From a virus: DNA of 26,482 nt. Made by a program: the position numbers and the translations under genes. The DNA lies in the IMG/VR virus record IMGVR_UViG_3300006754_000136, positions 1 to 26,482 of that record; one strand, given 5' to 3'. The notes beneath the pieces are model-generated. The model was given only the letters and a program-made list of their open reading frames with translations, did not search any database and had not been told where the DNA came from. Within the stretch, counting starts at the first letter, position 1; each line of letters starts with the position of its first letter. Of the stretch, positions 2,477 to 25,671 are shown piece by piece.

Positions 2477-4681
2477 ATGGCGACTCCTCAATTATCTCCT
2501 GGTGTATTAATCAGGGAAGTTGATTTAACAGTCGGAAGAGCTGAGAATGTACTAGATAACATCGGTGCTATTGCCGGTCCATTTAAGATTGGACCAGTTA
2601 ATGAAGTTGTGGATATTCAAACATCACAACAATTCATCGATACATTTGGTAAACCACTCTCTTCTGATAGCCAGTACGAGTACTGGATGACTGCTTCTTC
2701 CTTCCTGAGTTATGGAGGAGTTTTAAAGGTAGTAAGAACAAGTGGAGATGATTTAAATAATGCTAATGCTGGTGTAGGTATTGCATCAACAGATTCCTTA
2801 TTGATAGAAAATAAGGATGACTATGAGGCAAATCATACAACTGCCACAGATTTCTATTATGGAGCAAAGAACCCAGGTAATTGGGCTAATACAATGAAGG
2901 TTTGCTTCATTGACAATGCTGCTGACCAAACAATTGGAATTGCTACTACTAATCCAGGGAATGCTGGAATGGTAATTGGATATGGTATTACATCAACATT
3001 GGATAACGTAGTTATCCCTGGTGCTGGTTCAACCTCAGGTTTTACAGGTTATCTAAAAGGTATTATTACAGGCGTTTCAACAGACGCTGTTGCTTCTAAC
3101 AGTACAATAGATGTTAAGATATTCTCTAGAGTATCTAGTGCAGGAACTGAAACACAGATTAACTATCAGGAAAGTGATCCTGCTAGATCCTTTGAAGTAT
3201 CTGACACTCTATGGTTAGTCAATAATTCTGGTATCAATACTGGTGGAGGTGGTGCTTCTGGTGTATCTAGATCCGCAGCTACTTCAGTTGATTGGTATGA
3301 TCAACAGACTCTTGGATTAACTAATTCTACAGTTTATTGGAAAGCAGTTGCTTCAAAACCTGTAACAAGTAATTATGTTTCCAACAGACAAGGACAGAAT
3401 GATGCTTGTCATATTGTTATCGTAGATGACACTGGAGACATTACAGGAATTCAAGGGAACATCCTTGAGAAGCATAGTTTCCTATCTAAAGCAAAAGATA
3501 CAGTTGCAGATGGCGAATCTGGCAAGAAGACATACTATAAGGATTTCCTTGTAGACAATTCAGCTCAGATATGGGCTGGTTACAACCCATCACAAGGAGT
3601 TGATGCTTACTGGTTAACTGACCCTAAAGCTGATGGATTCTCCTCAGATTACGTTAAAGTAACAACTGGTGATGGTCTTTGGGGACAATCTGCACAGGGA
3701 GTTAACTTCAGTAGCATAGGAAATGTTACTTATACTCTAGGTGGTGGTGAGAACTATGTTTCTGGTGGTGGAATGACTGCTACATTAGGAAACTTGATGA
3801 CATCTTATAATAAGTTCTCTAACAAAGATGATGTTGCAGTAGACTTCCTAATTATGGGTCCTGGTCTATCTGTAGAAGCTCAAACTCAAGCAAAAGCAAA
3901 CCTCCTGCTCTCAATTGCAGGTGATAGAAAAGATTGTGTTGCTTGTATTTCACCTCACAGAGCAAATGTTGTTAATGTTTCAAACACAACAACAGCAACA
4001 AATAATTTACTTAAGTACTACAGTCCACTATCATCTTCATCCTATGGTGTATTTGATACTGGTTATAAGTACATGTATGACAGATTTAATAATGAATTCC
4101 GTTGGATCCCATGTAATGGAGACGTTGCTGGATTGATGGTAAGAACAGGAATCAATGCATATCCTTGGTTCTCACCTGCTGGTCAACAAAGAGGAATTCT
4201 GAATAATGCTGTTAAACTAGCATATACTCCTAATAAGGATCAAAGAGATCTTCTTTACTCTGCAAGAGTTAATCCAATTATCAATCAAAAGGGTATTGGT
4301 ATTATGCTCTTTGGAGATAAGACTGCTCTTGGTTATGCATCTGCATTCGATAGAATCAATGTTAGAAGACTGTTCCTTACAGTGGAACAATCACTTGAAG
4401 GGGCTGCAAATGCTCAACTGTTCGAACTAAATGATGTAAATACTAGGTCGAACTTTGTTAACATTGTTGAACCTTACTTAAGGGATGTCCAAGCTAAGAG
4501 AGGTCTATATGACTTCCTAGTTGTTTGTGATGAAACTAATAACACCCCTGATGTTATTGATAATAATGAATTCAGAGCTGACATTTACTTGAAGCCAACT
4601 AAATCTATTAACTATGTCACTTTGACCTTCGTTGCTACCAGAACTGGTGTTGCATTCGAAGAAGTTGTAGGAACTGTTTAA
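2477..4681 (+). CDS. 18: Contractile tail sheath protein (gp18)
   Basis: Forms the contractile outer tube of the tail; subunits slide during contraction to drive the inner tube through the envelope. The N-terminus MATPQLSPGVLIREVDLT is typical of T4-type sheath proteins, followed by a GPFKIGPVNEVVDI region and a C-terminal half with the conserved DRFNNEFRWIPCNG, NPIINQKGIGIMLFGDKTAL and RTGVAFEEVV segments. The C-terminal region carries the conserved tube-contacting domain. At 734 aa it is longer than T4 gp18 (659 aa); the extra length is in the Ser/Thr/Gly-rich middle, the usual site of variable surface domains. The ATG has an AGGGGAA ribosome site 6 nt upstream and follows a late promoter. 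It is followed directly by the tail tube gene, as in T4. Confidence 0.97.
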   Translation: MATPQLSPGVLIREVDLTVGRAENVLDNIGAIAGPFKIGPVNEVVDIQTSQQFIDTFGKPLSSDSQYEYWMTASSFLSYGGVLKVVRTSGDDLNNANAGVGIASTDSLLIENKDDYEANHTTATDFYYGAKNPGNWANTMKVCFIDNAADQTIGIATTNPGNAGMVIGYGITSTLDNVVIPGAGSTSGFTGYLKGIITGVSTDAVASNSTIDVKIFSRVSSAGTETQINYQESDPARSFEVSDTLWLVNNSGINTGGGGASGVSRSAATSVDWYDQQTLGLTNSTVYWKAVASKPVTSNYVSNRQGQNDACHIVIVDDTGDITGIQGNILEKHSFLSKAKDTVADGESGKKTYYKDFLVDNSAQIWAGYNPSQGVDAYWLTDPKADGFSSDYVKVTTGDGLWGQSAQGVNFSSIGNVTYTLGGGENYVSGGGMTATLGNLMTSYNKFSNKDDVAVDFLIMGPGLSVEAQTQAKANLLLSIAGDRKDCVACISPHRANVVNVSNTTTATNNLLKYYSPLSSSSYGVFDTGYKYMYDRFNNEFRWIPCNGDVAGLMVRTGINAYPWFSPAGQQRGILNNAVKLAYTPNKDQRDLLYSARVNPIINQKGIGIMLFGDKTALGYASAFDRINVRRLFLTVEQSLEGAANAQLFELNDVNTRSNFVNIVEPYLRDVQAKRGLYDFLVVCDETNNTPDVIDNNEFRADIYLKPTKSINYVTLTFVATRTGVAFEEVVGTV

Positions 4682-4697
4682 CTTTATTAAATAACAT

Positions 4698-4703
4698 AGG
4701 AGG
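4698..4703 (+). promoter_or_regulatory. Strong Shine-Dalgarno site of the tail tube gene
   Basis: AGGAGG sits 9 nt upstream of the ATG at 4713. It is one of the best ribosome sites in the head/tail block and fits the high copy number of the tube protein. Confidence 0.7.
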
Positions 4704-4712
4704 AACCAACTA

Positions 4713-5342
4713 ATGGCAGAAACAAGAACACTTTCACAATTTAAAGCAAAACTGGCAGGTGGCGCTGCCCGCCCCAATTTATTTGAAGTCTCAATTCCTA
4801 CTTTCCCATCTTCAGTTAATGGAGCATGGGGATCAGGTGATGATGGAGAAAATGGAGTCTTTAAATTTTTATGTAAAGCAGCAACACTTCCTGCTTCAAA
4901 TATAGGAGATGTGACTATTCCTTTTAGAGGAAGAGTTTTACATGTAGCTGGAGATAGGACATTCGATCCTTGGACAGTTACAGTTATAAATGATGAAGAT
5001 TTTAGAATAAGAACTGCCTTTGAAACATGGGCAAATGCTATGAGTAAGTTGGATGACGCCACTGGTGTTACTAATCCATCTTCTTATATGTCTGATGCTT
5101 TTGTTCAACAGTTAGGAAGAGGAGCAGGAGTTGCTTCTGGTTCTAATGATGGTGCAGAATCTTCTATTCTCAGAACATACAAGTTTTATGATATCTTCCC
5201 TACTTCAGTTGCTGAAATTGCTCTAAGTTATGATACTACTGATACACCTGAGGAATTTGATGTAACATTCCAGGTTCAGTACTTCACAATTGGCAATTCA
5301 TTACAATCAAGTGGTGGATCAGGAGAGGTTTTAATTTCTTGA
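4713..5342 (+). CDS. 19: Tail tube protein (gp19)
   Basis: Subunit of the inner rigid tube that carries DNA through the tail. Family hallmarks are visible in T4 order: ARPNLFEVSIPTFP near the N-terminus, FLCKAATLPAS, then HVAGDRTFDPWTVTVINDED followed by FETWANAM, and a C-terminal EFDVTFQVQYF strand. At 209 aa it is longer than T4 gp19 (163 aa); a Gly/Ser-rich loop (residues about 30-45), another near 135-150 and a Ser/Gly-rich tail account for this. It lies 31 nt after the sheath gene and appears co-transcribed with it. A second protein of similar plan is encoded at 12609-13172. Confidence 0.96.
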   Translation: MAETRTLSQFKAKLAGGAARPNLFEVSIPTFPSSVNGAWGSGDDGENGVFKFLCKAATLPASNIGDVTIPFRGRVLHVAGDRTFDPWTVTVINDEDFRIRTAFETWANAMSKLDDATGVTNPSSYMSDAFVQQLGRGAGVASGSNDGAESSILRTYKFYDIFPTSVAEIALSYDTTDTPEEFDVTFQVQYFTIGNSLQSSGGSGEVLIS

Positions 5343-5348
5343 TAAATA
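5341..5348 (+). promoter_or_regulatory. Late promoter octamer before portal gene
   Basis: GATAAATA (7 of 8 to TATAAATA) overlaps the stop codon of the tail tube gene and ends 33 nt before the portal ATG. Confidence 0.65.
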
Positions 5349-5370
5349 CTAGAAGGATAAACTTCTAGTA
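5347..5370 (+). repeat. Hairpin in the portal gene leader
   Basis: A perfect 9-bp inverted repeat, TACTAGAAG and CTTCTAGTA, flanks a 6-nt loop and ends 11 nt before the portal ATG. No T-run follows, so it is not a standard terminator. It overlaps the end of the late octamer and occupies the place where a ribosome site would be. It could protect the 3' end of the gp19 transcript or modulate portal translation; both ideas are inference. Confidence 0.5.
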
Positions 5371-5381
5371 GTATTATTGAC

Positions 5382-7046
5382 ATGGCGAGATTATTTGGTT
5401 TCTCTATTGAAGATACGGATCAAACCCCACCTGGCGTAATATCTCCGGTTCCTCCTAATCAACAGGATGGATCGGAGCATTATGTCAGTTCCGGGTTTTT
5501 TGGTTCGTATGTAGATATTGAGGGTGTATATAGAACTGAGAATGACTTATTAAGAAGATATCGTCAGATGTCTTTGTATCCAGAATGTGATAGTGCAATT
5601 GAGGATATTGTAAATGAAGCAATTGTAGCTGATACTAATGATAGTCCAATACAAATTGATCTAGAGAATTTAAATGCTAGTGATGGCATAAAGAAAAAAA
5701 TAAGAGAAGAGTTTAAGTTTATTCTTGAACTTTTAGATTTTGATAAGAAAGCACACGAAATATTCAGAAATTGGTATATCGATGGAAGACTTTATTATAA
5801 TAAAGTAATAGACCAAAAGGCTCCTCACGAAGGAATTCAGGAATTAAGATATATTGATTCTGCCAAGATGCGTTTTATACGCCAGATAAAAAAGCAATCT
5901 GGGAATGCAGTTGGTAACGGATTAGTAAGAGAAGATGTAACAGCATATAATTTTCCAGATATAGAAGAATATTTTATTTTTACTCCTCAGGGAACTAATA
6001 CTGGTCAGACTTATACTAGTAGTGGAGGAAATCCAGCAAAAGGAATTAAGATGACCCGTGATTCGGTCACTTATTGTACTTCTGGATTAGTAGATAGGAA
6101 TAAGGGATCAACTCTTTCTTGGTTACATAAAGCAATCAAACCACTCAATCAATTAATGATGATTGAGGATAGTTTAGTAATTTATAGATTATCAAGAGCA
6201 CCAGAAAGAAGAATCTTCTATATTGATGTTGGTAATCTACCTAAAGTTAAAGCAGAGCAGTATTTACGTGATGTAATGATGCGTTATAGAAATAAACTTG
6301 TCTATGATGCTAACACAGGTGAGGTTCGTGATGATAAAAAGTTTATGTCTATGATGGAAGACTTCTGGCTTCCTAGACGAGAAGGGGGTAGGGGAACTGA
6401 AATCACCACCCTTCCTGGTGGGCAGAATCTTGGAGAAATTACAGACATTAATTACTTCCAGAAGAAGCTTTATAGGTCATTAAATGTACCTGAAACTAGG
6501 GTTAGTGGAGAAGGTGGATTTAATCTTGGAAGATCTTCTGAAATTCTTAGAGATGAAGTTAAGTTTAGTAAGTTTGTAGGTAGAATGAGGAAGAGATTCT
6601 CTCATCTGTTTAGTGACATATTAAAAACTCAACTTATCTTAAAGAACATCATAACCCCAGAAGATTGGGATGTGATGGAAGATCATATTCAGTATGATTA
6701 TCTTTATGACAATCACTTTGCTGAACTTAAAGATTCTGAACTTCTACAAGAAAGACTCAATCTTGCTGGCGCAGCAGAACCTTATATTGGTAAGTACTAC
6801 TCTGCTGATTATGTGAGGAGACAGATTCTCAGACAGACTGATGGTGAAATCATTGAACAGGATAAGATCATTGAACAAGAAATTAAAGATGGAGTAATTC
6901 CTGATCCTAATGCACCTATAGATCCTGAGACTGGAATGCCTTTGGACCCTGCAGCTCCTCAAATTAATGGAGACATGGGAGCAAACCCCATAGATCCTTC
7001 ACCACAGGAAAAAAAGTTTGAGTCTCCCAAGGGTGGAGAGATATAA
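5382..7046 (+). CDS. 20: Portal vertex protein (gp20)
   Basis: Forms the dodecameric ring at the special capsid vertex through which DNA enters and leaves, and starts head assembly. At 554 aa it is close to T4 gp20 (524 aa). Typical features are the early LLRRYRQMSLYPECDSAIEDIVNEAIV stretch, the central SWLHKAIKPLNQLMMIEDSLVIYRLSRAPERR core, the stem region GGQNLGEITDINYFQKKLYRSLNVPETR, and FNLGRSSEILRDEVKFSKFV. The C-terminus is Pro/Asp/Glu-rich. No Shine-Dalgarno site is visible before the ATG; instead a hairpin sits there. The stop codon overlaps the next late promoter. Confidence 0.97.
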   Translation: MARLFGFSIEDTDQTPPGVISPVPPNQQDGSEHYVSSGFFGSYVDIEGVYRTENDLLRRYRQMSLYPECDSAIEDIVNEAIVADTNDSPIQIDLENLNASDGIKKKIREEFKFILELLDFDKKAHEIFRNWYIDGRLYYNKVIDQKAPHEGIQELRYIDSAKMRFIRQIKKQSGNAVGNGLVREDVTAYNFPDIEEYFIFTPQGTNTGQTYTSSGGNPAKGIKMTRDSVTYCTSGLVDRNKGSTLSWLHKAIKPLNQLMMIEDSLVIYRLSRAPERRIFYIDVGNLPKVKAEQYLRDVMMRYRNKLVYDANTGEVRDDKKFMSMMEDFWLPRREGGRGTEITTLPGGQNLGEITDINYFQKKLYRSLNVPETRVSGEGGFNLGRSSEILRDEVKFSKFVGRMRKRFSHLFSDILKTQLILKNIITPEDWDVMEDHIQYDYLYDNHFAELKDSELLQERLNLAGAAEPYIGKYYSADYVRRQILRQTDGEIIEQDKIIEQEIKDGVIPDPNAPIDPETGMPLDPAAPQINGDMGANPIDPSPQEKKFESPKGGEI

Positions 7047-12608: not shown

Positions 12609-13172
12609 ATGGTCGTTAAAAAGTCTATAGTAGGACAAATTGAGAATAGAAATTTTCTAGCTCCTACTGGGTTCCAATTTATAATGAATAGAGCACCCAA
12701 GGTTTCCTATTTTGGAAACATGGTAAGTATTCCTTCGATGACTCTAGGAACACTTAGCGTACCTAATTACTTGAAGGATATTCCATTACCAGGAGAGACT
12801 CTTGATTTTGAAGATTTAACTTTACGTTTTTTGGTTGATGAAAAGCTTGAGAATTACATGGAGATTCAACACTGGCTTAGAGGTCTAGGATTCCCAGAAA
12901 GTTTGTCAGAAACATATAAGTATCAGAAAGAGAAAAGCGATTTAAGTCAGCCAGCAAGAAGTCAATTAAATCTATATTCCGATGGAACATTAACTGTTTT
13001 AGATTCAAATAATATTCCTAAATTTAAAGTAATCTTTGAGAATATGTTCCCTGTCAGTTTAACAACGTTAGACTTTGATGCTACTCAAACAGACCTAGAG
13101 TACTTCACAGCACAGGTCACTTTTAAGTATACTATATACAATATACTAGATATGAATGCGGATGATTGTTAA
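12609..13172 (+). CDS. Tail-tube-like protein, candidate tail completion protein (cyanophage gp3 position)
   Basis: A 187-aa protein whose segment order resembles the gp19 tail-tube plan: a start region RNFLAPTGFQFIMNRAP (compare ARPNLFEVSI in gp19), a segment MVSIPSMTLGTLSVPNYL in the place of the ATLPAS loop, LPGETLDFEDLTLRFLVDEKL in place of the AGDRTFDPWTVTVINDED strand pair, a short helix MEIQHWLRGLG, and a C-terminal FDATQTDLEYFTAQVTFKYTIY strand pair. Between capsid gene and uvsY in cyanophages a tail completion protein called gp3 is usually annotated, and this gene fits that place. It could be a tail terminator, tube initiator or tube-related baseplate component. The tube-like plan is seen; the exact role is not settled. 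Confidence 0.8.
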   Translation: MVVKKSIVGQIENRNFLAPTGFQFIMNRAPKVSYFGNMVSIPSMTLGTLSVPNYLKDIPLPGETLDFEDLTLRFLVDEKLENYMEIQHWLRGLGFPESLSETYKYQKEKSDLSQPARSQLNLYSDGTLTVLDSNNIPKFKVIFENMFPVSLTTLDFDATQTDLEYFTAQVTFKYTIYNILDMNADDC

Positions 13173-19097: not shown

Positions 19098-19192
19098 TGC
19101 GTAAAGTAATATATTGGATTAAAGAACACTTACCGAGGTGGTTGGATTTGGGTCACGATAAGCCTTGGGATCACAGGAGAGACAAAAAGTAA
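19097..19192 (+). CDS. Tiny ORF bridging gp46 and the sulfotransferase-like gene (31 aa)
   Basis: A 31-aa reading frame, rich in Trp, Lys and Arg (three Trp). Its ATG overlaps the gp46 stop (TAATG) and its stop overlaps the next ATG (TAATG), so it is inserted exactly in a coupled chain. This exact fit supports translation. No family known; it may serve mainly to carry ribosomes on to the next gene. Confidence 0.5.
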   Translation: MRKVIYWIKEHLPRWLDLGHDKPWDHRRDKK

Positions 19193-19857
19193 TGGCAACA
19201 TTTAAACATACTGAAACAGGAAAGAGATTTCATTTTATTCACATTCCACGTACAGGAGGAAGATTTATAGAAGTTAATTTAAAGAATAATGGATGGGAAG
19301 CAGAACCAATAGAAGTATATGGAATACCTCATTATCAGCATTCATTTATAGAGGATTGTGAGATAGCTCATTTTCATAGAGAATTGTATGAGAAGTATTG
19401 TGATATAGAAGGTATTCCTCAAATTGCTGTAGTTAGAAATCCTATTGATAAATTTTTCTCAGCATCCATTTATATGACTCAGGTATATGGTCCACAAATT
19501 ATGACACAGGTGGAGGATGAGGAGAAGTTTTTTTATATGTTAGAGAATTTTCCTTTCCCTGAAACTTTAAATTGGTGGAGATCTCAGGTAGAATTTCTTT
19601 CTGAGGATACTCATATATGGAAATATGAGGATGGGTTAGGTCCTAAGTTTTCTAAGTGGGTTAGTGAAATAGTAGGAGTTCCTTTTAAAACAGATGCATT
19701 TGCTCAATATGAGATGAGTCCCAAGGAAGGAACTACCAAGCTTGACAGGAGTGGTAAACTTATAGATAATGTTAGAAAATTGTGTAGGAGGGACATTGAA
19801 CAACTTTATCCCGAACTGGATACATCACTCCAAGAAAGAGAAAAAGCGAAAGCTTAA
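19192..19857 (+). CDS. Sulfotransferase-family-like protein
   Basis: A 221-aa protein with the two cofactor motifs of PAPS-dependent sulfotransferases: FIHIPRTGGRFIE near the N-terminus (residues 15-27, the 5'-phosphosulfate loop, compare HIPKTGG) and IAVVRNPIDKFFSAS (78-92, the 3'-phosphate Arg-Ser motif; R82 and S90). The remaining body is aromatic-rich and acidic, with a Lys-rich C-terminus. The ATG at 19192 is chosen because it overlaps the upstream stop (TAATG) and begins the compact domain; a TTG at 19165 is less likely. The substrate is unknown: a sulfated host glycan, lipid or protein is possible. It is placed at the end of the gp46 transcript and followed by a weak hairpin terminator. 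Confidence 0.75.
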   Translation: MATFKHTETGKRFHFIHIPRTGGRFIEVNLKNNGWEAEPIEVYGIPHYQHSFIEDCEIAHFHRELYEKYCDIEGIPQIAVVRNPIDKFFSASIYMTQVYGPQIMTQVEDEEKFFYMLENFPFPETLNWWRSQVEFLSEDTHIWKYEDGLGPKFSKWVSEIVGVPFKTDAFAQYEMSPKEGTTKLDRSGKLIDNVRKLCRRDIEQLYPELDTSLQEREKAKA

Positions 19858-20334: not shown

Positions 20335-22449
20335 ATGACAGTCAACTACGAAATTAAGTCCCAGCTTGCTAAGTTGCTTGCTACAGAGGATTTGGTAGTA
20401 GAAAATAGGAACGTAGAGACTGCTCAGTTCGATGTTCATACACGTGTGTTGACTCTTCCTCTATGGAAGCGTGCCAGTAATCTTGTATATGACTTATTAG
20501 TGGGTCATGAGGTAGGACATGCTCTGTTTACTCCTGATGAGGATTGGACCCAGAGGATAAATGTTCCTCAACAGTTTGTAAATGTTTGTGAGGATGCTAG
20601 AATTGAGAAGTTGATGAAGAGAAAGTATCCTGGACTTACCAAAACTTTCTATAATGGATATAATGAACTTAATGATAAAGATTTCTTTGAGTTAGATGGT
20701 GAAGATATTAATAGTTTTAATCTTGCTGATAGGGCTAATCTATATTTCAAGAGTGGCAACGTCCTTCATATCATTTTTTCGTCTGCTGAAAAACAGATTA
20801 TCAATTTGATTGGTTCTTCTGAGACTTTTGATGATAGTCTTAATGCTGCAGAAGTTCTTTATAAGTATTGCGCTCAACAACAGATGGAGCAGAAACAAGA
20901 AAAGCGTCAAGAAGAAGATATTCAAAAAGAATTAAATTTATCTAGTGATCAGAAAGATGTAGAGGAGATGACTGATGATGAACTCTTAGAAGAGTTAGAA
21001 AAGGAACCACAACAACCAAAGGAGGATCCTGCTCAATTAGATACTCCTAGTTATGAGAAAGGGGAAGAACCTAAAGTTCAGACAGATGATACTTTTAATG
21101 ATAAGTTAAGTGAATTAAATGATAATCGTCAATTTCATGAGAATGTATATTGTGAAATACCAACAGTAGATGTGAATAAGGCTATTATTTCTCATACTGA
21201 AATACATAATGAATTGAATGAGTACTTTCGAGACATATTAAAACCAACTGATGTTAGGAGTTGGGTTGCAGATTATAGTAATGTAGATGAAGATTACCAT
21301 TCTTTCAAAAAGTCAGCACAGAAGGAGGTAAATTATCTTGTTAAGGAGTTTGAATGTAGAAAGGCAGCTGACAATTATGCTCGTACTACTACTAGTCGTA
21401 CTGGGGTTCTCTCTACAGAGAAGCTTCATAGTTATAAATTCAATGAAGACCTTTTTAGGAAGATCAGCATAGTTCCTGACGGTAAGAATCATGGATTGAT
21501 TTTTATTCTTGATTGGTCAGGGTCTATGTGTCATTGTATCAAGGATACAATTAAGCAATTATTTAATTTGGTTTGGTTTTGTAAAAAAGTTCAGATTCCT
21601 TTTGAAGTCTATGCCTTTTCTAATGCTTATTATTTTAGAGATATCTCTGTAAAGTCTCCTATAATTACAGAACCTAAGGAGAATGAATTTGTTGTTGATG
21701 ACCAATTCTGTCTTTTAAATTTTATTAGTAGTAAAGTAAATAAGGCAACTTTAGAAAATCAGTTGTTGAACTTGTGGAGATTGGTAGGTTCTTTAGATTT
21801 TCATAGTAAATTTCGATCTTGCTATCAGGTTCCTCAGAAATTTGGTTTAGGTGGTACTCCTCTTAATGATGCTTTGGTGTGTTTACATCAGATTATTCCT
21901 CAATTTAAAAAGCAGAATGATCTTCAGAAAGTTCAATGTGTTATTTTGAGTGATGGTGAAGCAGGACAAATGCCAGTTTATAAAACCTTTACTAGACATG
22001 ATGGAGAAGAAAGGTTAGGGCAGAGGCATTGGACACCTGAGACTTCTTTTTTACGTAATCGTAAAACAGGTCATACTTATAAACTTTCTTATGAATATTA
22101 TAAGTTTACAGAAGTTTTACTTAATAATTTGAAGCAGATTCATCCAGATGTTAATTTTATTGGTATTCGTCTTGTTTCATCAAGAGACTTTGGTACTTTT
22201 ATTAAAAGATATGATAGTATAGATGATGATACTTTAAGAAAAGCGAAGAAAGATAAAACTTATTCTATTAGGGATTGTGGTTATGATACTTATTTTGCTA
22301 TAATAGATTCAGGATTATCTAATGATGATGAATTTGAAGTACATGAAGATGCTTCTAAGGCACAAATTAAGCGTGCTTTTGTTAAGTCTCTTCAAGCCAA
22401 AAAACTAAATAAAAAAGTTCTTGGTGAGTTTATAGGACTAGTGGCTTAA
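20335..22449 (+). CDS. HExxH and VWA domain protein (CobT-like; candidate metallopeptidase/chaperone partner)
   Basis: A 704-aa protein of three parts. The N-terminal part has HEVGH at residues 58-62, a zinc-peptidase-type HExxH, with CEDARIEKLMKRKYPG downstream supplying a possible third ligand (the Glu or Asp of CEDARIE). The middle (residues about 180-260) is Glu/Gln/Lys/Asp-rich and disordered. The C-terminal part is a von Willebrand A domain with a full MIDAS: DWSGS (D393, S395, S397), a Thr in GLGGTPLNDAL (T508) and Asp in LSDGEAGQ (D540). VWA proteins paired with MoxR/CobS-type ATPases are known; the matching ATPase is encoded at 23146. In cyanophages such genes are called CobT-like or peptidase. 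No ribosome site is visible and a strong terminator lies just upstream. Confidence 0.9.
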   Translation: MTVNYEIKSQLAKLLATEDLVVENRNVETAQFDVHTRVLTLPLWKRASNLVYDLLVGHEVGHALFTPDEDWTQRINVPQQFVNVCEDARIEKLMKRKYPGLTKTFYNGYNELNDKDFFELDGEDINSFNLADRANLYFKSGNVLHIIFSSAEKQIINLIGSSETFDDSLNAAEVLYKYCAQQQMEQKQEKRQEEDIQKELNLSSDQKDVEEMTDDELLEELEKEPQQPKEDPAQLDTPSYEKGEEPKVQTDDTFNDKLSELNDNRQFHENVYCEIPTVDVNKAIISHTEIHNELNEYFRDILKPTDVRSWVADYSNVDEDYHSFKKSAQKEVNYLVKEFECRKAADNYARTTTSRTGVLSTEKLHSYKFNEDLFRKISIVPDGKNHGLIFILDWSGSMCHCIKDTIKQLFNLVWFCKKVQIPFEVYAFSNAYYFRDISVKSPIITEPKENEFVVDDQFCLLNFISSKVNKATLENQLLNLWRLVGSLDFHSKFRSCYQVPQKFGLGGTPLNDALVCLHQIIPQFKKQNDLQKVQCVILSDGEAGQMPVYKTFTRHDGEERLGQRHWTPETSFLRNRKTGHTYKLSYEYYKFTEVLLNNLKQIHPDVNFIGIRLVSSRDFGTFIKRYDSIDDDTLRKAKKDKTYSIRDCGYDTYFAIIDSGLSNDDEFEVHEDASKAQIKRAFVKSLQAKKLNKKVLGEFIGLVA

Positions 22450-22451
22450 TT

Positions 22452-22592
22452 ATGAGTAAAGAAGAAATCCTTGAGGAGATTGAAGGACTTGCTGAAGAAT
22501 TGGGCGGTGAGTACCTTCATCAAACTGCAATTAACACATCAGGTCAGAGTGTCAAACGTATTATTATAGAGTATGACAATGAAATTGACTGA
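22452..22592 (+). CDS. Small acidic hypothetical protein (46 aa)
   Basis: A 46-aa ORF beginning MSKEEILEEIEGLAEELGG, with an acidic helix followed by a strand KRIIIEYDNE. It starts 2 nt after the VWA stop and overlaps the next ORF by 20 nt (or 14 nt with the later start). Packing between the two partner genes argues for real translation. Family unknown. Confidence 0.6.
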   Translation: MSKEEILEEIEGLAEELGGEYLHQTAINTSGQSVKRIIIEYDNEID

Positions 22593-22752
22593 AGAAGCAA
22601 TTAAAAACTTCCCACAGGAATATAAGAAAATGAATTCTAAACTATCTAAAAGACAGATAGAAATTCTTGCTGGCGCAGAATTGAAGTCTCATGAGGGTAT
22701 GGTCTTTGGTGGGATGTATAGTGATTGGAAAAGGAGGAAGGGATATGAATAA
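22573..22752 (+). CDS. Small basic hypothetical protein (59 aa)
   Basis: A 59-aa frame beginning MTMKLTEEAIKNFPQEYKK; the second Met at 22579 is an alternative start and may be preferred. It is basic, with a helical front half (KLSKRQIEILAGAELKSHEG) and a WKRRKGYE end. It overlaps the preceding ORF and the ribosome site and first codons of the next. Function unknown. Confidence 0.6.
   Translation: MTMKLTEEAIKNFPQEYKKMNSKLSKRQIEILAGAELKSHEGMVFGGMYSDWKRRKGYE
22731..22737 (+). promoter_or_regulatory. Strong Shine-Dalgarno site fixing the start at 22745
   Basis: AAGGAGG ends 7 nt before the ATG at 22745. It rules against the longer start at 22691. Confidence 0.75.
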
Positions 22753-23071
22753 GACTTACGATGATTCTAACTGGCGTGAGGAGATGAAATCCTATACTAG
22801 CAGTAAGAAGGATCTTGAGATGTTGGAGAATGGACCTAAGAGTTTAGCTCAGTCATGGTATATGAGTACATTGTATCAAAAGTGGAAAAAGATTAAGGGA
22901 TATAAAGATCCTGAACCACCTGATTGTTCATCATCACTTAAGGAATGGGAAGAGAGTATAAAAAAATATGAAGATATGCCATCAGAGGCATCTGGTCCAG
23001 GAGGTCCTTTACAGGATCAGGCAGGTTCTGGGGTTTATGATGACTATAGTGATCCTTATGGGGGTCACTAA
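22745..23071 (+). CDS. Hypothetical protein with Pro/Gly/Asp-rich tail (108 aa)
   Basis: A 108-aa protein, MNKTYDDSNWREEM and onward. The first 75 residues are helical and charged, with aromatic residues (WYMSTLYQKWKKIKGYK). From about residue 80 the tail is rich in Pro, Gly, Ser, Asp and Tyr (EASGPGGPLQDQAGSGVYDDY) and probably disordered. The start is fixed by a near-perfect ribosome site. It lies between the VWA gene and the AAA+ ATPase and may belong to the same complex; that is inference. No family recognised. Confidence 0.75.
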   Translation: MNKTYDDSNWREEMKSYTSSKKDLEMLENGPKSLAQSWYMSTLYQKWKKIKGYKDPEPPDCSSSLKEWEESIKKYEDMPSEASGPGGPLQDQAGSGVYDDYSDPYGGH

Positions 23072-23145
23072 AGAAAGTGGCATAGAAGAAGTCCTTTCCT
23101 TCTCCTATGGCTCTACAATAAGAACAAATGAAAAACCTTTAAATT

Positions 23146-24246
23146 ATGGCACTTAATCTTGAATCACTTGTAACTTCATTACAGTCTCTTTATGGAGAGG
23201 AGATAGTTGCTGCTGATATTCGTGCTTGGTGCTTGATGAATAATACTCATTATCATACAGTTACTAGCAAGATCACTGAATTTAAAGTTGGTCGTGGTAA
23301 GTGGAATTTAAAGGTAGTCCCAAGAGAAGTAAATAATATAGAGAAAGCATATCAAGCACCTGCTGTTGTGCCTCCTGTTGAGCAAAATCTTACTCCCGCA
23401 AAAAATGATACCTTCGTCCACTTTGGTCCTTTTAATGATATTAAGACCATTCTCAAAACCAGTGTGTTTTATCCTACATTCATTACTGGACTTTCAGGCA
23501 ATGGTAAAACGTTCAGTGTTGAACAAGCCTGTGCCCAACTCGGAAGAGAACTTATTAGAGTAAACATTACTATAGAAACAGATGAAGATGATCTCATTGG
23601 TGGCTTCCGCCTTGTTGACGGTGCCACAGTCTGGCACAACGGCCCAGTCATTGAAGCTATGGAACGGGGATGTGTATTGCTCCTTGACGAGATCGACCTT
23701 GCCAGTAACAAAATCCTCTGCCTCCAACCAATCCTTGAAGGTAACGGAATTTTCCTTAAAAAAATCGGAAGATTCGTGAGCCCAGAAAAAGGATTCAACG
23801 TCATCGCAACAGCAAACACTAAAGGTAAAGGTTCTGACGACGGACGGTTTATTGGAACTAATGTGCTTAATGAAGCCTTCCTCGAAAGATTCCCTGTAAC
23901 TTTTGAACAAAACTATCCTTCTCCAGCGATTGAGAAAAGAATTCTTGGAAAGGTTGCTTCTGTATTAGGAGTTACTGATACTGATTTCTGTCAGAGGTTA
24001 GTAGATTGGGGTGATATTATTCGTAAGACTTTTTATGATGGTGGTATTGATGAGATTATTAGTACAAGAAGGTTGGTTCATATAGTTCGTGCTTATTCTA
24101 TTTTTAATAATAAGGCAAAGGCAATTGAAGTCTGTGTAAACAGATTTGATGATGAAACTAAGCAATCTTTCTTAGAACTATATGATAAGGTAGATGCTGA
24201 ATTTGAATTTGAAAAAGTGGAGGATAAGGTTGATGAAGATAACTGA
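23146..24246 (+). CDS. cobS: MoxR/CobS-type AAA+ ATPase
   Basis: A 366-aa AAA+ protein of the class annotated CobS in cyanophages. The first 95 residues form a small helical/strand domain, then a Pro-rich linker. The ATPase core has Walker A GLSGNGKT (residues 115-122), ETDEDDLIGG (residues about 143-152, the region that faces the pore in MoxR proteins), Walker B CVLLLDEIDLAS (D181-E182), sensor 1 ATANTKG (near N224), and a likely Arg finger in FLERFPV (R248). In cobalt chelatase CobS forms a ring with CobT; here the only candidate partner is the VWA protein 0.7 kb upstream. Bases about 23500-23900 are GC-richer with C-ending codons than flanking DNA. The end overlaps the oxygenase start by 14 nt. 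Confidence 0.9.
   Translation: MALNLESLVTSLQSLYGEEIVAADIRAWCLMNNTHYHTVTSKITEFKVGRGKWNLKVVPREVNNIEKAYQAPAVVPPVEQNLTPAKNDTFVHFGPFNDIKTILKTSVFYPTFITGLSGNGKTFSVEQACAQLGRELIRVNITIETDEDDLIGGFRLVDGATVWHNGPVIEAMERGCVLLLDEIDLASNKILCLQPILEGNGIFLKKIGRFVSPEKGFNVIATANTKGKGSDDGRFIGTNVLNEAFLERFPVTFEQNYPSPAIEKRILGKVASVLGVTDTDFCQRLVDWGDIIRKTFYDGGIDEIISTRRLVHIVRAYSIFNNKAKAIEVCVNRFDDETKQSFLELYDKVDAEFEFEKVEDKVDEDN
24219..24223 (+). promoter_or_regulatory. Shine-Dalgarno site fixing the oxygenase start
   Basis: GGAGG lies 9 nt before the ATG at 24233, inside the end of the ATPase gene. It supports this start over the upstream ATG at 24194. Confidence 0.65.
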
Positions 24247-24847
24247 TCATATTGGAGTCTTTGATGGTGGAGTGCCTAATGACTTATGTGAATCCATCAT
24301 TGAGTCTTTTAATATCTGGGAGGGAAACCGTGAATTTATAGGACCCTGTTTTAAAGATGGGGATAAGCAGATGGCAGATGGTCATTTCTCAAGGAATGAT
24401 GTTCAGATGTGTTTGGAAGTGGTGGAATTAGATTTAACTAAAAAATTAAATTCTTATATTAGGAAAGCATTTGATGAATATGTTAATGTTTATAGGGGAT
24501 TAATTCAAGATACTGATCCTCTCTCTTCCTGGTCTACAAAGGTTCAGAGAACAACTGCAGGTGGTGGATATCATCAGTGGCATTGTGAGGATGGACAATT
24601 CATTTATAGGGATAGAGCTCTTACATGGATGGTTTATTTAAATTCAATTCCCACAGATAATGGAGGAGCAACTGAGTTCTTGCATCAGAAGATTGCTTTA
24701 CAACCAAAAGCAGGAACTATTGTTCTGTGGCCAGCAGGATACACTCATGTACATAGGGGAGGATTTCTAACTGGTGAAATTCCTAAGTATATTTCTACTG
24801 GATGGTTTCTCAGAGAGCCTGGACAAACTACAAGGAATTTGTTATAA
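24233..24847 (+). CDS. 2-oxoglutarate/Fe(II)-dependent oxygenase (prolyl hydroxylase-like)
   Basis: A 204-aa protein with the double-stranded beta-helix oxygenase pattern. The metal triad appears as H117 and E119 in GGGYHQWHCEDG (HxE in place of the more usual HxD) and a distal His, H172 or H174, in GYTHVHRGGF. K185 in GEIPKYISTGW fits the 2-oxoglutarate carboxylate-binding position, as in prolyl 4-hydroxylases. The core LTWMVYLNSIPTDNGGATEF and LQPKAGTIVLWPAGY strands are family-typical. Such oxygenases are common in marine T4-like phages, with proposed roles in protein or nucleotide hydroxylation; the substrate here is unknown. It overlaps the ATPase gene by 14 nt, so the two are translationally coupled. 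Confidence 0.9.
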   Translation: MKITDHIGVFDGGVPNDLCESIIESFNIWEGNREFIGPCFKDGDKQMADGHFSRNDVQMCLEVVELDLTKKLNSYIRKAFDEYVNVYRGLIQDTDPLSSWSTKVQRTTAGGGYHQWHCEDGQFIYRDRALTWMVYLNSIPTDNGGATEFLHQKIALQPKAGTIVLWPAGYTHVHRGGFLTGEIPKYISTGWFLREPGQTTRNLL

Positions 24848-24849
24848 TT

Positions 24850-25671
24850 ATGGCATGGTGGTTATTATATGAGGAACTTTATGGTGACATGGATAAGGAG
24901 TATCCTATTATGAATAATAGGGGTATAGAATTATCAGGAGGATATGAATGGACTCCTGGTTCACCTTGGCCACCTATTTGGGATATTCCAGAGCAGGATT
25001 CTGCGTATCCTTATTCTGATTATTATTACGATTATAATCGTAATGATTCTGATATAAAAAATCCATTTACCGATCCAAAGGATAGAGAGAGGGCATTTAA
25101 AGTGACAGGAGATTTCGTTGATGGGCATGGAGATGTTCATGCTGGTGCAGGAAACTGGGAGGATAAAGCAAAGTTTATCTACGAATCACCAGATAATGGT
25201 AAAACAGTTTATAGGTATCCGATAGGAACTGATCCAAGGAAAAGAGAAAGGGTGATACTTGAAGGTGATGTTGAAAAATTCCCAAAGCAAGTATGGCCAA
25301 CACCATTGAAAGATGATTGTTATCCTACAGTTAGTTCTCTTAAACAAGAACCTTCCATAAACAAAACAGCATACAAAAAATATGAAGAAGATAAAGGAAT
25401 CAAAGATCTTCAGGATTATGTCACTTCAACCTATAATGGACATTATACTTCCCAAGGATCCAACGTCCAAACGCTCGATCTTATCGAATCAGTTGGTGAT
25501 GCGGAATCTTTCTGCCGTTCTAATGCAATCAAGTATTTGAGTAGGTACGACAAGAAAGGACAAGCAAAACGTGATATACTAAAAGCAATGCACTATTGCC
25601 TACTGTTATATTATTTCAGTGGGAATACTCAAGACAATGAAACTCCGACCCGTGGTTATGAAACTTTCTGA
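24850..25671 (+). CDS. Protein with aromatic-rich N-terminus and C-terminal DUF3310-like region
   Basis: A 273-aa protein, start ATG at 24850, 2 nt after the oxygenase stop. The first 70 residues are full of Tyr, Trp, Pro and Asp (YEWTPGSPWPPIWDIPEQD; YPYSDYYYDYNRND) and probably unstructured. The middle has a GDFVDGHGDVHAGAGNWED segment. The last 75 residues match the DUF3310 pattern: NGHYTSQG, TLDLIESVG, FCRSNAIKYLSRYDKKGQAK and DILKAMHYCLLLYYF (the NAIKYLSR..KKG..D..KA.HY signature). In T7, gp1.7 with this domain is a nucleotide kinase; activity here is unproven. Its end overlaps gp45 by 14 nt. The assignment is from pattern and is fairly sure for the domain, not the function. Confidence 0.8.
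   Translation: MAWWLLYEELYGDMDKEYPIMNNRGIELSGGYEWTPGSPWPPIWDIPEQDSAYPYSDYYYDYNRNDSDIKNPFTDPKDRERAFKVTGDFVDGHGDVHAGAGNWEDKAKFIYESPDNGKTVYRYPIGTDPRKRERVILEGDVEKFPKQVWPTPLKDDCYPTVSSLKQEPSINKTAYKKYEEDKGIKDLQDYVTSTYNGHYTSQGSNVQTLDLIESVGDAESFCRSNAIKYLSRYDKKGQAKRDILKAMHYCLLLYYFSGNTQDNETPTRGYETF

What the first reader, a model, noticed from the sequence alone, without database searches (positions are those of the whole stretch)
20335..24246. A MoxR-type ATPase and an HExxH+VWA protein form a candidate protein-remodelling or protease machine, not a B12 enzyme
The large protein has an N-terminal HExxH (H58, E59, H62) and a C-terminal VWA domain with a complete MIDAS (D393, S395, S397, T508, D540). The neighbouring ATPase has Walker A and B, sensor 1 and an Arg finger. 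Known biology: MoxR-VWA pairs remodel or activate proteins, and CobS/CobT is one specialised member of that architecture. Cyanophage cobS is usually described as a cobalamin gene, but no CobN subunit is visible here and a peptidase-like motif in the partner fits substrate processing better. The intervening small ORFs could be adaptors. The biochemical role is inference.
Basis: partly seen in the sequence, partly recalled or inferred. Interest (0 to 1): 0.65.

Follow-up and report, generated by a model that had tools for sequence, protein, structure and literature searches.

The report
Phage ATPase with metallopeptidase-like VWA partner
A gene pair carried by nearly all ocean cyanophages of the T4 type, usually labelled a vitamin B12 gene, looks instead like an ATP-driven machine whose partner protein keeps an intact metal-peptidase motif that real B12 proteins lack, so a widely repeated claim about viruses boosting vitamin production should be re-tested.

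Summary
In 173 full-length relatives H58, E59, H62, E86 and the MIDAS are essentially invariant. The ATPase is a full-length CobS homologue, far below the CobS equivalog cut-off. The VWA protein matches no CobT or peptidase Pfam model. Related phage and plasmid VWA proteins with HExxH do match Pfam CobT, while 25 biosynthetic CobT proteins have no HExxH. AlphaFold2 puts HExxH and E86 on successive helices; the N-terminal domain's best PDB matches are all metallopeptidase-like but weak (E 0.17 or more). The best match of the whole model is NorD, a MoxR partner. CobN was found in only 2 of 50,697 phage records, neither a cyanophage. E. coli, host of some relatives (IncC plasmids), lacks CobNST. 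Synechococcus does have CobN-family genes, so host-CobN hijacking (published, PMC8651126) is not excluded. The small ORFs between the genes are mostly lineage-specific, not adaptors. Best reading: a MoxR/VWA remodelling machine with a gluzincin-like domain, encoded among replication and recombination genes. Proteolysis is unproven.

The parts
20335..22449 (+). VWA-domain partner protein, 704 aa: N-terminal gluzincin-like domain (res. 1-200), disordered linker (about 201-239), helical region (249-368), VWA domain (about 386-704)
   Evidence: phrog_459 E 2e-257; AlphaFold2 mean pLDDT 84.2; best PDB fold match NorD of NorQD
20506..20520 (+). HExxH motif, residues 58-62 (HEVGH), in helix 49-65
   Evidence: H58 172/173, E59 173/173, H62 172/173; secondary structure
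20590..20607 (+). E86-D87-A-R89-I-E91: candidate third metal ligand E86 in the following helix (79-97)
   Evidence: E86 and D87 173/173, R89 172/173
21511..21525 (+). MIDAS DxSxS, residues 393-397 (DWSGS)
   Evidence: invariant in 173
21850..21864 (+). MIDAS T508 in GGTPL, residues 506-510
   Evidence: 171/173
21952..21957 (+). MIDAS D540-G541
   Evidence: D540 173/173
23146..24246 (+). CobS-like MoxR-class AAA+ ATPase, 366 aa
   Evidence: AAA_5 4e-18, CbbQ_C 8e-5; profile vs solved CobS 9ujv E 1e-58 over residues 46-356
23488..23511 (+). Walker A, residues 115-122 (GLSGNGKT)
   Evidence: invariant G115, G118, G120, K121
23677..23697 (+). Walker B region, residues 178-184 (LLLDEID)
   Evidence: E182 and D184 invariant, D181 nearly
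22452..23071 (+). small ORFs between the two genes (46, 59 and 108 aa); judged not part of the machine
   Evidence: 108-aa ORF in 16/173, 59-aa in 11/173, 46-aa in 3/173 loci; gap size varies widely

Best explanation
The two genes make one machine: a MoxR-class AAA+ ring of the CobS lineage and its dedicated VWA partner. Inferred from NorQD: a finger of the VWA domain sits in the pore of the ATPase ring, and ATP hydrolysis pulls or twists the linker that joins the VWA domain to the N-terminal domain while the MIDAS holds a target protein. The N-terminal domain has a gluzincin-like metal site (H58, H62, E86; E59 as general base). The most likely use is to process or remodel a protein target during phage DNA replication and recombination, rather than to insert cobalt into a corrin ring. 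Shown: the gene pair, conservation of every motif, distant homology to CobS/CobT, the predicted fold, and gene context. Inferred: complex formation, metal binding, proteolysis, target.
For: Pair adjacent on the same strand in 75 of 80 loci of the first set, the other 5 being cut at or near contig ends, and in 77 of 92 of a wider set, where most of the 15 exceptions are cut off. Near-equal counts in 50,697 phage records: 463 with the VWA protein, 467 with the ATPase at 80% coverage or more. Invariant HExxH, E86 and MIDAS. 11 of 13 mobile-element lineages keep HExxH plus an ED-type helix motif, while 25 biosynthetic CobT have no HExxH. AF2: pLDDT above 90 at the site. The first 12 PDB matches of the N-terminal domain are all metallopeptidases or metallopeptidase-like proteins (selecase, abylysin, jannalysin, PprI, ArdC), out of 350,542 chains. 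Whole model: best match NorD. ATPase is a full-length CobS homologue with intact motifs. Neighbours are gp46 and gp45 in T4-like phages, DnaE in SSU5/RHEph10/BUCTxx99/Acinetobacter, SSB-Bet in IncC, YqaJ in Vibrio.
Against: Fold matches of the N-terminal domain are individually weak (best E 0.17, prob up to 0.93). No Pfam peptidase model matches. Two relatives (BUCTxx99, an Acinetobacter plasmid) have lost both histidines but keep E59 and E86, so catalysis is not needed in all members and E59 may be structural. Phage early genes cluster anyway, so the replication context is weak evidence, and several of the lineages share one ATPase clade. Coordinates of the model could not be measured, so site geometry is untested.
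Confidence: 0.55

Rival explanations
1. Viral CobST: the pair is a true cobaltochelatase motor that drives host CobN to raise cobalamin production during infection (published proposal, PMC8651126).
For: ATPase is homologous to CobS over its whole length. Related VWA proteins match Pfam CobT and CobT_C (SSU5 2e-37 and 2.5e-112). The Synechococcus genomes tested have two CobN/ChlH-family genes each and no CobT was found in 61 related genomes, so a motor could be supplied by the phage.
Against: The window ATPase scores 68 bits against a CobS equivalog cut-off of 558 and the VWA protein matches no CobT model. Similar pairs sit in IncC plasmids and SSU5-type phage-plasmids of E. coli and Klebsiella; E. 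coli needed heterologous cobN, cobS and cobT to make B12 (PMC6249242). Pelagibacter phages also carry the pair; that SAR11 lacks B12 synthesis is from own knowledge, not tested here. The intact HExxH is absent from real CobT.
Confidence: 0.17
2. Metal-delivery chaperone: like NorQD, the pair inserts or exchanges a metal in a phage or host metalloprotein; the H/H/E site carries the metal and does not cut peptides.
For: NorD is the best fold match; NorQD inserts iron with a proposed twisting mechanism (PMC13036017); MoxR/VWA pairs commonly serve metalloenzymes.
Against: The NorD sequence examined (Phaeobacter plasmid) has no HExxH. E59, the general base of peptidases, is as conserved as the histidines, which metal carriage alone does not require, although its retention in histidine-less members weakens this point.
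Confidence: 0.2
3. The N-terminal site is a relic: a pure MoxR/VWA remodeller whose zincin-like fold is only a scaffold.
For: Biosynthetic CobT and two mobile-element relatives work, or persist, without the histidines.
Against: 172 of 173 homologues, many below 30-45% identity to the window protein, keep both histidines; drift would have removed them.
Confidence: 0.08

Closest known systems
CobS/CobT of aerobic cobaltochelatase (CobNST)
   Same: CobS-family ATPase over the whole length (solved CobS 9ujv E 1e-58); partner with N-terminal domain, acidic linker and C-terminal VWA; equivalent of E86 kept (EQAR)
   Different: HExxH present here and absent in 25 CobT; canonical MIDAS T508 here where CobT has a different motif (NIDGE); no CobN in the cyanophages; equivalog cut-offs not met; separate clade in the ATPase tree
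NorQ/NorD (MoxR/VWA iron-insertion chaperone)
   Same: AAA_5 plus CbbQ_C type ATPase; NorD is the best PDB fold match of the VWA protein; N-terminal domain, linker and VWA layout
   Different: The NorD protein examined has no HExxH; ATPase is closer to CobS than to NorQ (1e-58 vs 1e-25); no nitric oxide reductase nearby
Haloarchaeal and other tailed-virus 'CobST' (PMC8651126)
   Same: Adjacent ATPase and VWA genes in tailed viruses; same HExxH plus ED motif in Haloarcula virus HCTV-16
   Different: That paper calls the peptidase label a mistake; the intact metal motif found here argues the label had a basis
Minigluzincins (selecase, abylysin, jannalysin), PprI/IrrE, ArdC
   Same: Best fold matches of the N-terminal domain (prob up to 0.93); HExxH helix followed by a helix carrying a possible third ligand
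   Different: E-values not significant (0.17 or more); here the domain is tied to a VWA domain and an AAA+ partner
Midasin (Mdn1/Rea1)
   Same: AAA modules similar to the ATPase (best single domain about 83 bits); VWA/MIDAS used to hold targets; MDN1-MIDAS among fold matches
   Different: One eukaryotic giant chain; no HExxH domain known (own knowledge)

Membership tests
MoxR ATPase plus VWA partner | ATPase of the AAA_5/CbbQ class with Walker A, Walker B, sensor and Arg finger | tested here: met
   AAA_5 66 bits, CbbQ_C 23.3 bits over its cut-off of 20.6; motifs invariant
MoxR ATPase plus VWA partner | Adjacent gene with VWA domain and complete MIDAS | tested here: met
MoxR ATPase plus VWA partner | Physical complex, VWA finger in the ATPase pore | not testable with these tools
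   No complex prediction offered
CobT (TIGR01651, PF06213/PF11775) | Match to family model over its cut-off | tested here: not met
   No CobT model listed at E <= 10 in Pfam or E <= 0.1 in NCBIfam; profile comparison with 25 CobT gave only a 38-column match, probability 2.5%
CobS (TIGR01650) | Equivalog score of at least 558 bits | tested here: not met
   68.5 bits; homology itself is clear
Cobaltochelatase CobNST | CobN subunit in the same element | tested here: not met
   CobN in 2 of 50,697 phage records, neither of them a cyanophage; window is a fragment; host has CobN-family genes
Gluzincin metallopeptidase | HExxH | tested here: met
   172/173 with both histidines
Gluzincin metallopeptidase | Glu third ligand on a following helix | tested here: inconclusive
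   E86 invariant, helix 79-97; distance not measurable
Gluzincin metallopeptidase | Zincin fold | tested here: inconclusive
   First 12 PDB matches metallopeptidase-like, E 0.17 to 0.62
Gluzincin metallopeptidase | Zinc binding and peptide hydrolysis | not testable with these tools
   Needs protein
Known anti-phage defence proteins (PADLOC) | Match to a defence model | tested here: not met
   No match for either window protein

The most novel reading that the evidence does not exclude
Phage and plasmid 'CobST' are a distinct class of AAA+-driven metalloprotease: a MoxR ring powers a VWA-tethered gluzincin that cuts or strips proteins at replicating or recombining DNA, and the B12 enzyme CobT is a derivative that lost the protease site.
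Probability: 0.3. Interest if true: 0.85.

Novelty: new variant of a known kind. Interest (0 to 1): 0.55.

Why it matters
cobS is a core gene of T4-like cyanophages (PMC3037559) and is repeatedly counted as an auxiliary metabolic gene that boosts vitamin B12 in the ocean. If the pair is a protein-remodelling or protease machine, those inferences fail for cyanophages, phage-plasmids and IncC resistance plasmids alike. It would also give a concrete hypothesis for the origin of CobT.

Tried and rejected
Intervening ORFs as adaptors: rejected, not conserved. Absence of CobN in the window as an argument: rejected, the window is a fragment and hosts carry CobN-family genes. HDxxxH of CobT as a shifted HExxH: alignment with intermediates places those columns elsewhere. 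Cellular origin of the T4-type pair: of the 13 genome-contig hits the two examined sit among T4-like phage genes. Staphylococcus, Listeria and Lactobacillus phage ATPases: distant, and the neighbouring proteins checked carry no HExxH or DxSxS, set aside. PADLOC: nothing for the window proteins. Direct profile comparison with CobT: too weak to use alone. A library statement that SAR11 lacks B12 synthesis: not found. Expression data on cyanophage cobS: none found.
Full report
What is there. The window is a 26,482-base virus record, probably a fragment. Its genes are those of a T4-like marine myovirus: terminase, sheath, tube, portal, head protease, scaffold, capsid, UvsY, UvsW, late sigma factor, gp47, gp46, then the pair, a 2OG-Fe(II) oxygenase, a DUF3310 protein and the gp45 clamp.

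Conservation. In 173 full-length homologues H58, E59, H62 and the MIDAS residues are essentially invariant, and so are E86 and D87 on the next helix. The only departures at the tested positions are SSU5 (T508 to N) and BUCTxx99 (both histidines lost, and T508 to N). The ATPase keeps Walker A and B, sensor 1, the Arg finger and a second conserved arginine across phages and plasmids.

Pairing. In the first set 75 of 80 loci carry both genes side by side on one strand, and the other five are cut at or near contig ends. Of 50,697 phage records 463 carry the VWA protein and 467 the ATPase at high coverage, with matching counts for Synechococcus, Prochlorococcus and cyanophage records. The gap between the genes varies and the small ORFs in it are mostly lineage-specific.

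Relation to CobS/CobT. The ATPase profile matches solved CobS over residues 46-356 with E 1e-58, against 1e-25 for NorQ, but the window protein is far below the CobS equivalog cut-off. The VWA protein matches no CobT model. Intermediates close the gap: SSU5 matches CobT (2e-37) and CobT_C (2.5e-112), and the IncC plasmid protein matches CobT (1.7e-6); both carry HExxH. 25 biosynthetic CobT have no HExxH; the aligned columns read S-x-A-L-K/R or similar while the E86 equivalent remains. Across 13 mobile-element lineages 11 keep HExxH with the ED motif. In an ATPase tree seven chromosomal CobS form one clade (100/100) and the window lies in the T4-like clade. The tree is unrooted and has long branches, so the direction of change is not shown.

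Structure. AlphaFold2 gives mean pLDDT 84.2 for the whole protein and 91.8 for residues 1-202, with HExxH in helix 49-65 and E86 in helix 79-97. Against the PDB the whole model's best match is NorD of the NorQD complex. The first 12 matches of the N-terminal domain are metallopeptidases or metallopeptidase-like: selecase, abylysin, jannalysin, PprI and ArdC. Each is weak alone (E 0.17 or more); the consistency is the evidence. In the viral library the domain matches other CobT-like VWA proteins and, more weakly, SprT-like and other metallopeptidases.

B12 or not. CobN was found in only two of 50,697 phage records, a Pseudomonas phage and a faecal phage contig, and in no cyanophage. The two Synechococcus genomes tested carry two CobN/ChlH-family genes each, and no CobT was found in 61 related genomes, so hijacking host CobN, as proposed in PMC8651126, is possible in cyanobacteria. 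In a sample of 150 Pseudomonadota 32 of 39 genomes with CobT also have CobN, against 11 of 111 without CobT. Similar pairs occur in elements of enterobacteria, IncC plasmids and SSU5-type phage-plasmids; E. coli needed cobN, cobS and cobT from elsewhere to make B12. Pelagibacter phages carry the pair too; that SAR11 lacks B12 synthesis is my own knowledge.

Context. The pair sits between gp46 and gp45 in T4-like phages, near DnaE in SSU5, BUCTxx99, an Acinetobacter plasmid and Rhizobium phage RHEph10, near DNA polymerase and primase-helicase in phage T5S1, near SSB and Bet in IncC and YqaJ in Vibrio. No such neighbour is clear in Gordonia GMA3. Because phage early genes cluster, this is suggestive only.

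Mechanism. By analogy with NorQD (PMC13036017) the ATPase ring should grip a finger of the VWA domain and use ATP to move it relative to the N-terminal domain while the MIDAS binds the target. The intact metal site suggests that the N-terminal domain cuts or otherwise acts on that target. Conservation, homology and predicted fold are shown; complex formation, metal, catalysis and target are inferred.

Verdict. The new point is that mobile-element 'CobT' proteins keep a metallopeptidase-type motif that biosynthetic CobT lacks. I have not found this stated in the papers read, which is not proof that it is unpublished.

Noticed in passing
L181:7073-14957 (IncC plasmid) and L183:4614-8612 (Vibrio plasmid): A DUF3150 protein accompanies the CobS-like ATPase in both (labelled cobalamin biosynthesis in IncC, although Pfam says DUF3150, E 4e-91); a possible third component.
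   Followed up: partly
L218:909-1568 and 3009-6627: Haloarcula virus HCTV-16 has a putative SprT-family metalloprotease gene about 1.4 kb upstream of its CobS/CobT-like pair.
   Followed up: no
22573-22752 and 22691-23071: The two small ORFs both match phrog_16908 and weakly each other: a tandem pair of small related proteins of unknown function.
   Followed up: partly
4713-5342 and 12609-13172: Two tail-tube (phrog_45) homologues in one T4-like fragment.
   Followed up: no
19165-19857: Protein matching a galactose-3-O-sulfotransferase PHROG just upstream of the pair.
   Followed up: no
L093 (Nonlabens xiamenensis isolate, 188-kb contig): A contig filed in a bacterial isolate genome carries T4-like phage genes (UvsW, gp46, gp47, clamp loader) and the pair: a phage contig or prophage in the assembly.
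   Followed up: partly
phage record OQ572414.1, 16274-19999: Pseudomonas phage Y13 record holds a full-length CobN homologue (42.5% identity to the Synechococcus protein), possibly host DNA in the assembly.
   Followed up: no
24802-25671: 289-aa protein with a C-terminal DUF3310 domain after about 190 residues that match only an unknown PHROG.
   Followed up: no
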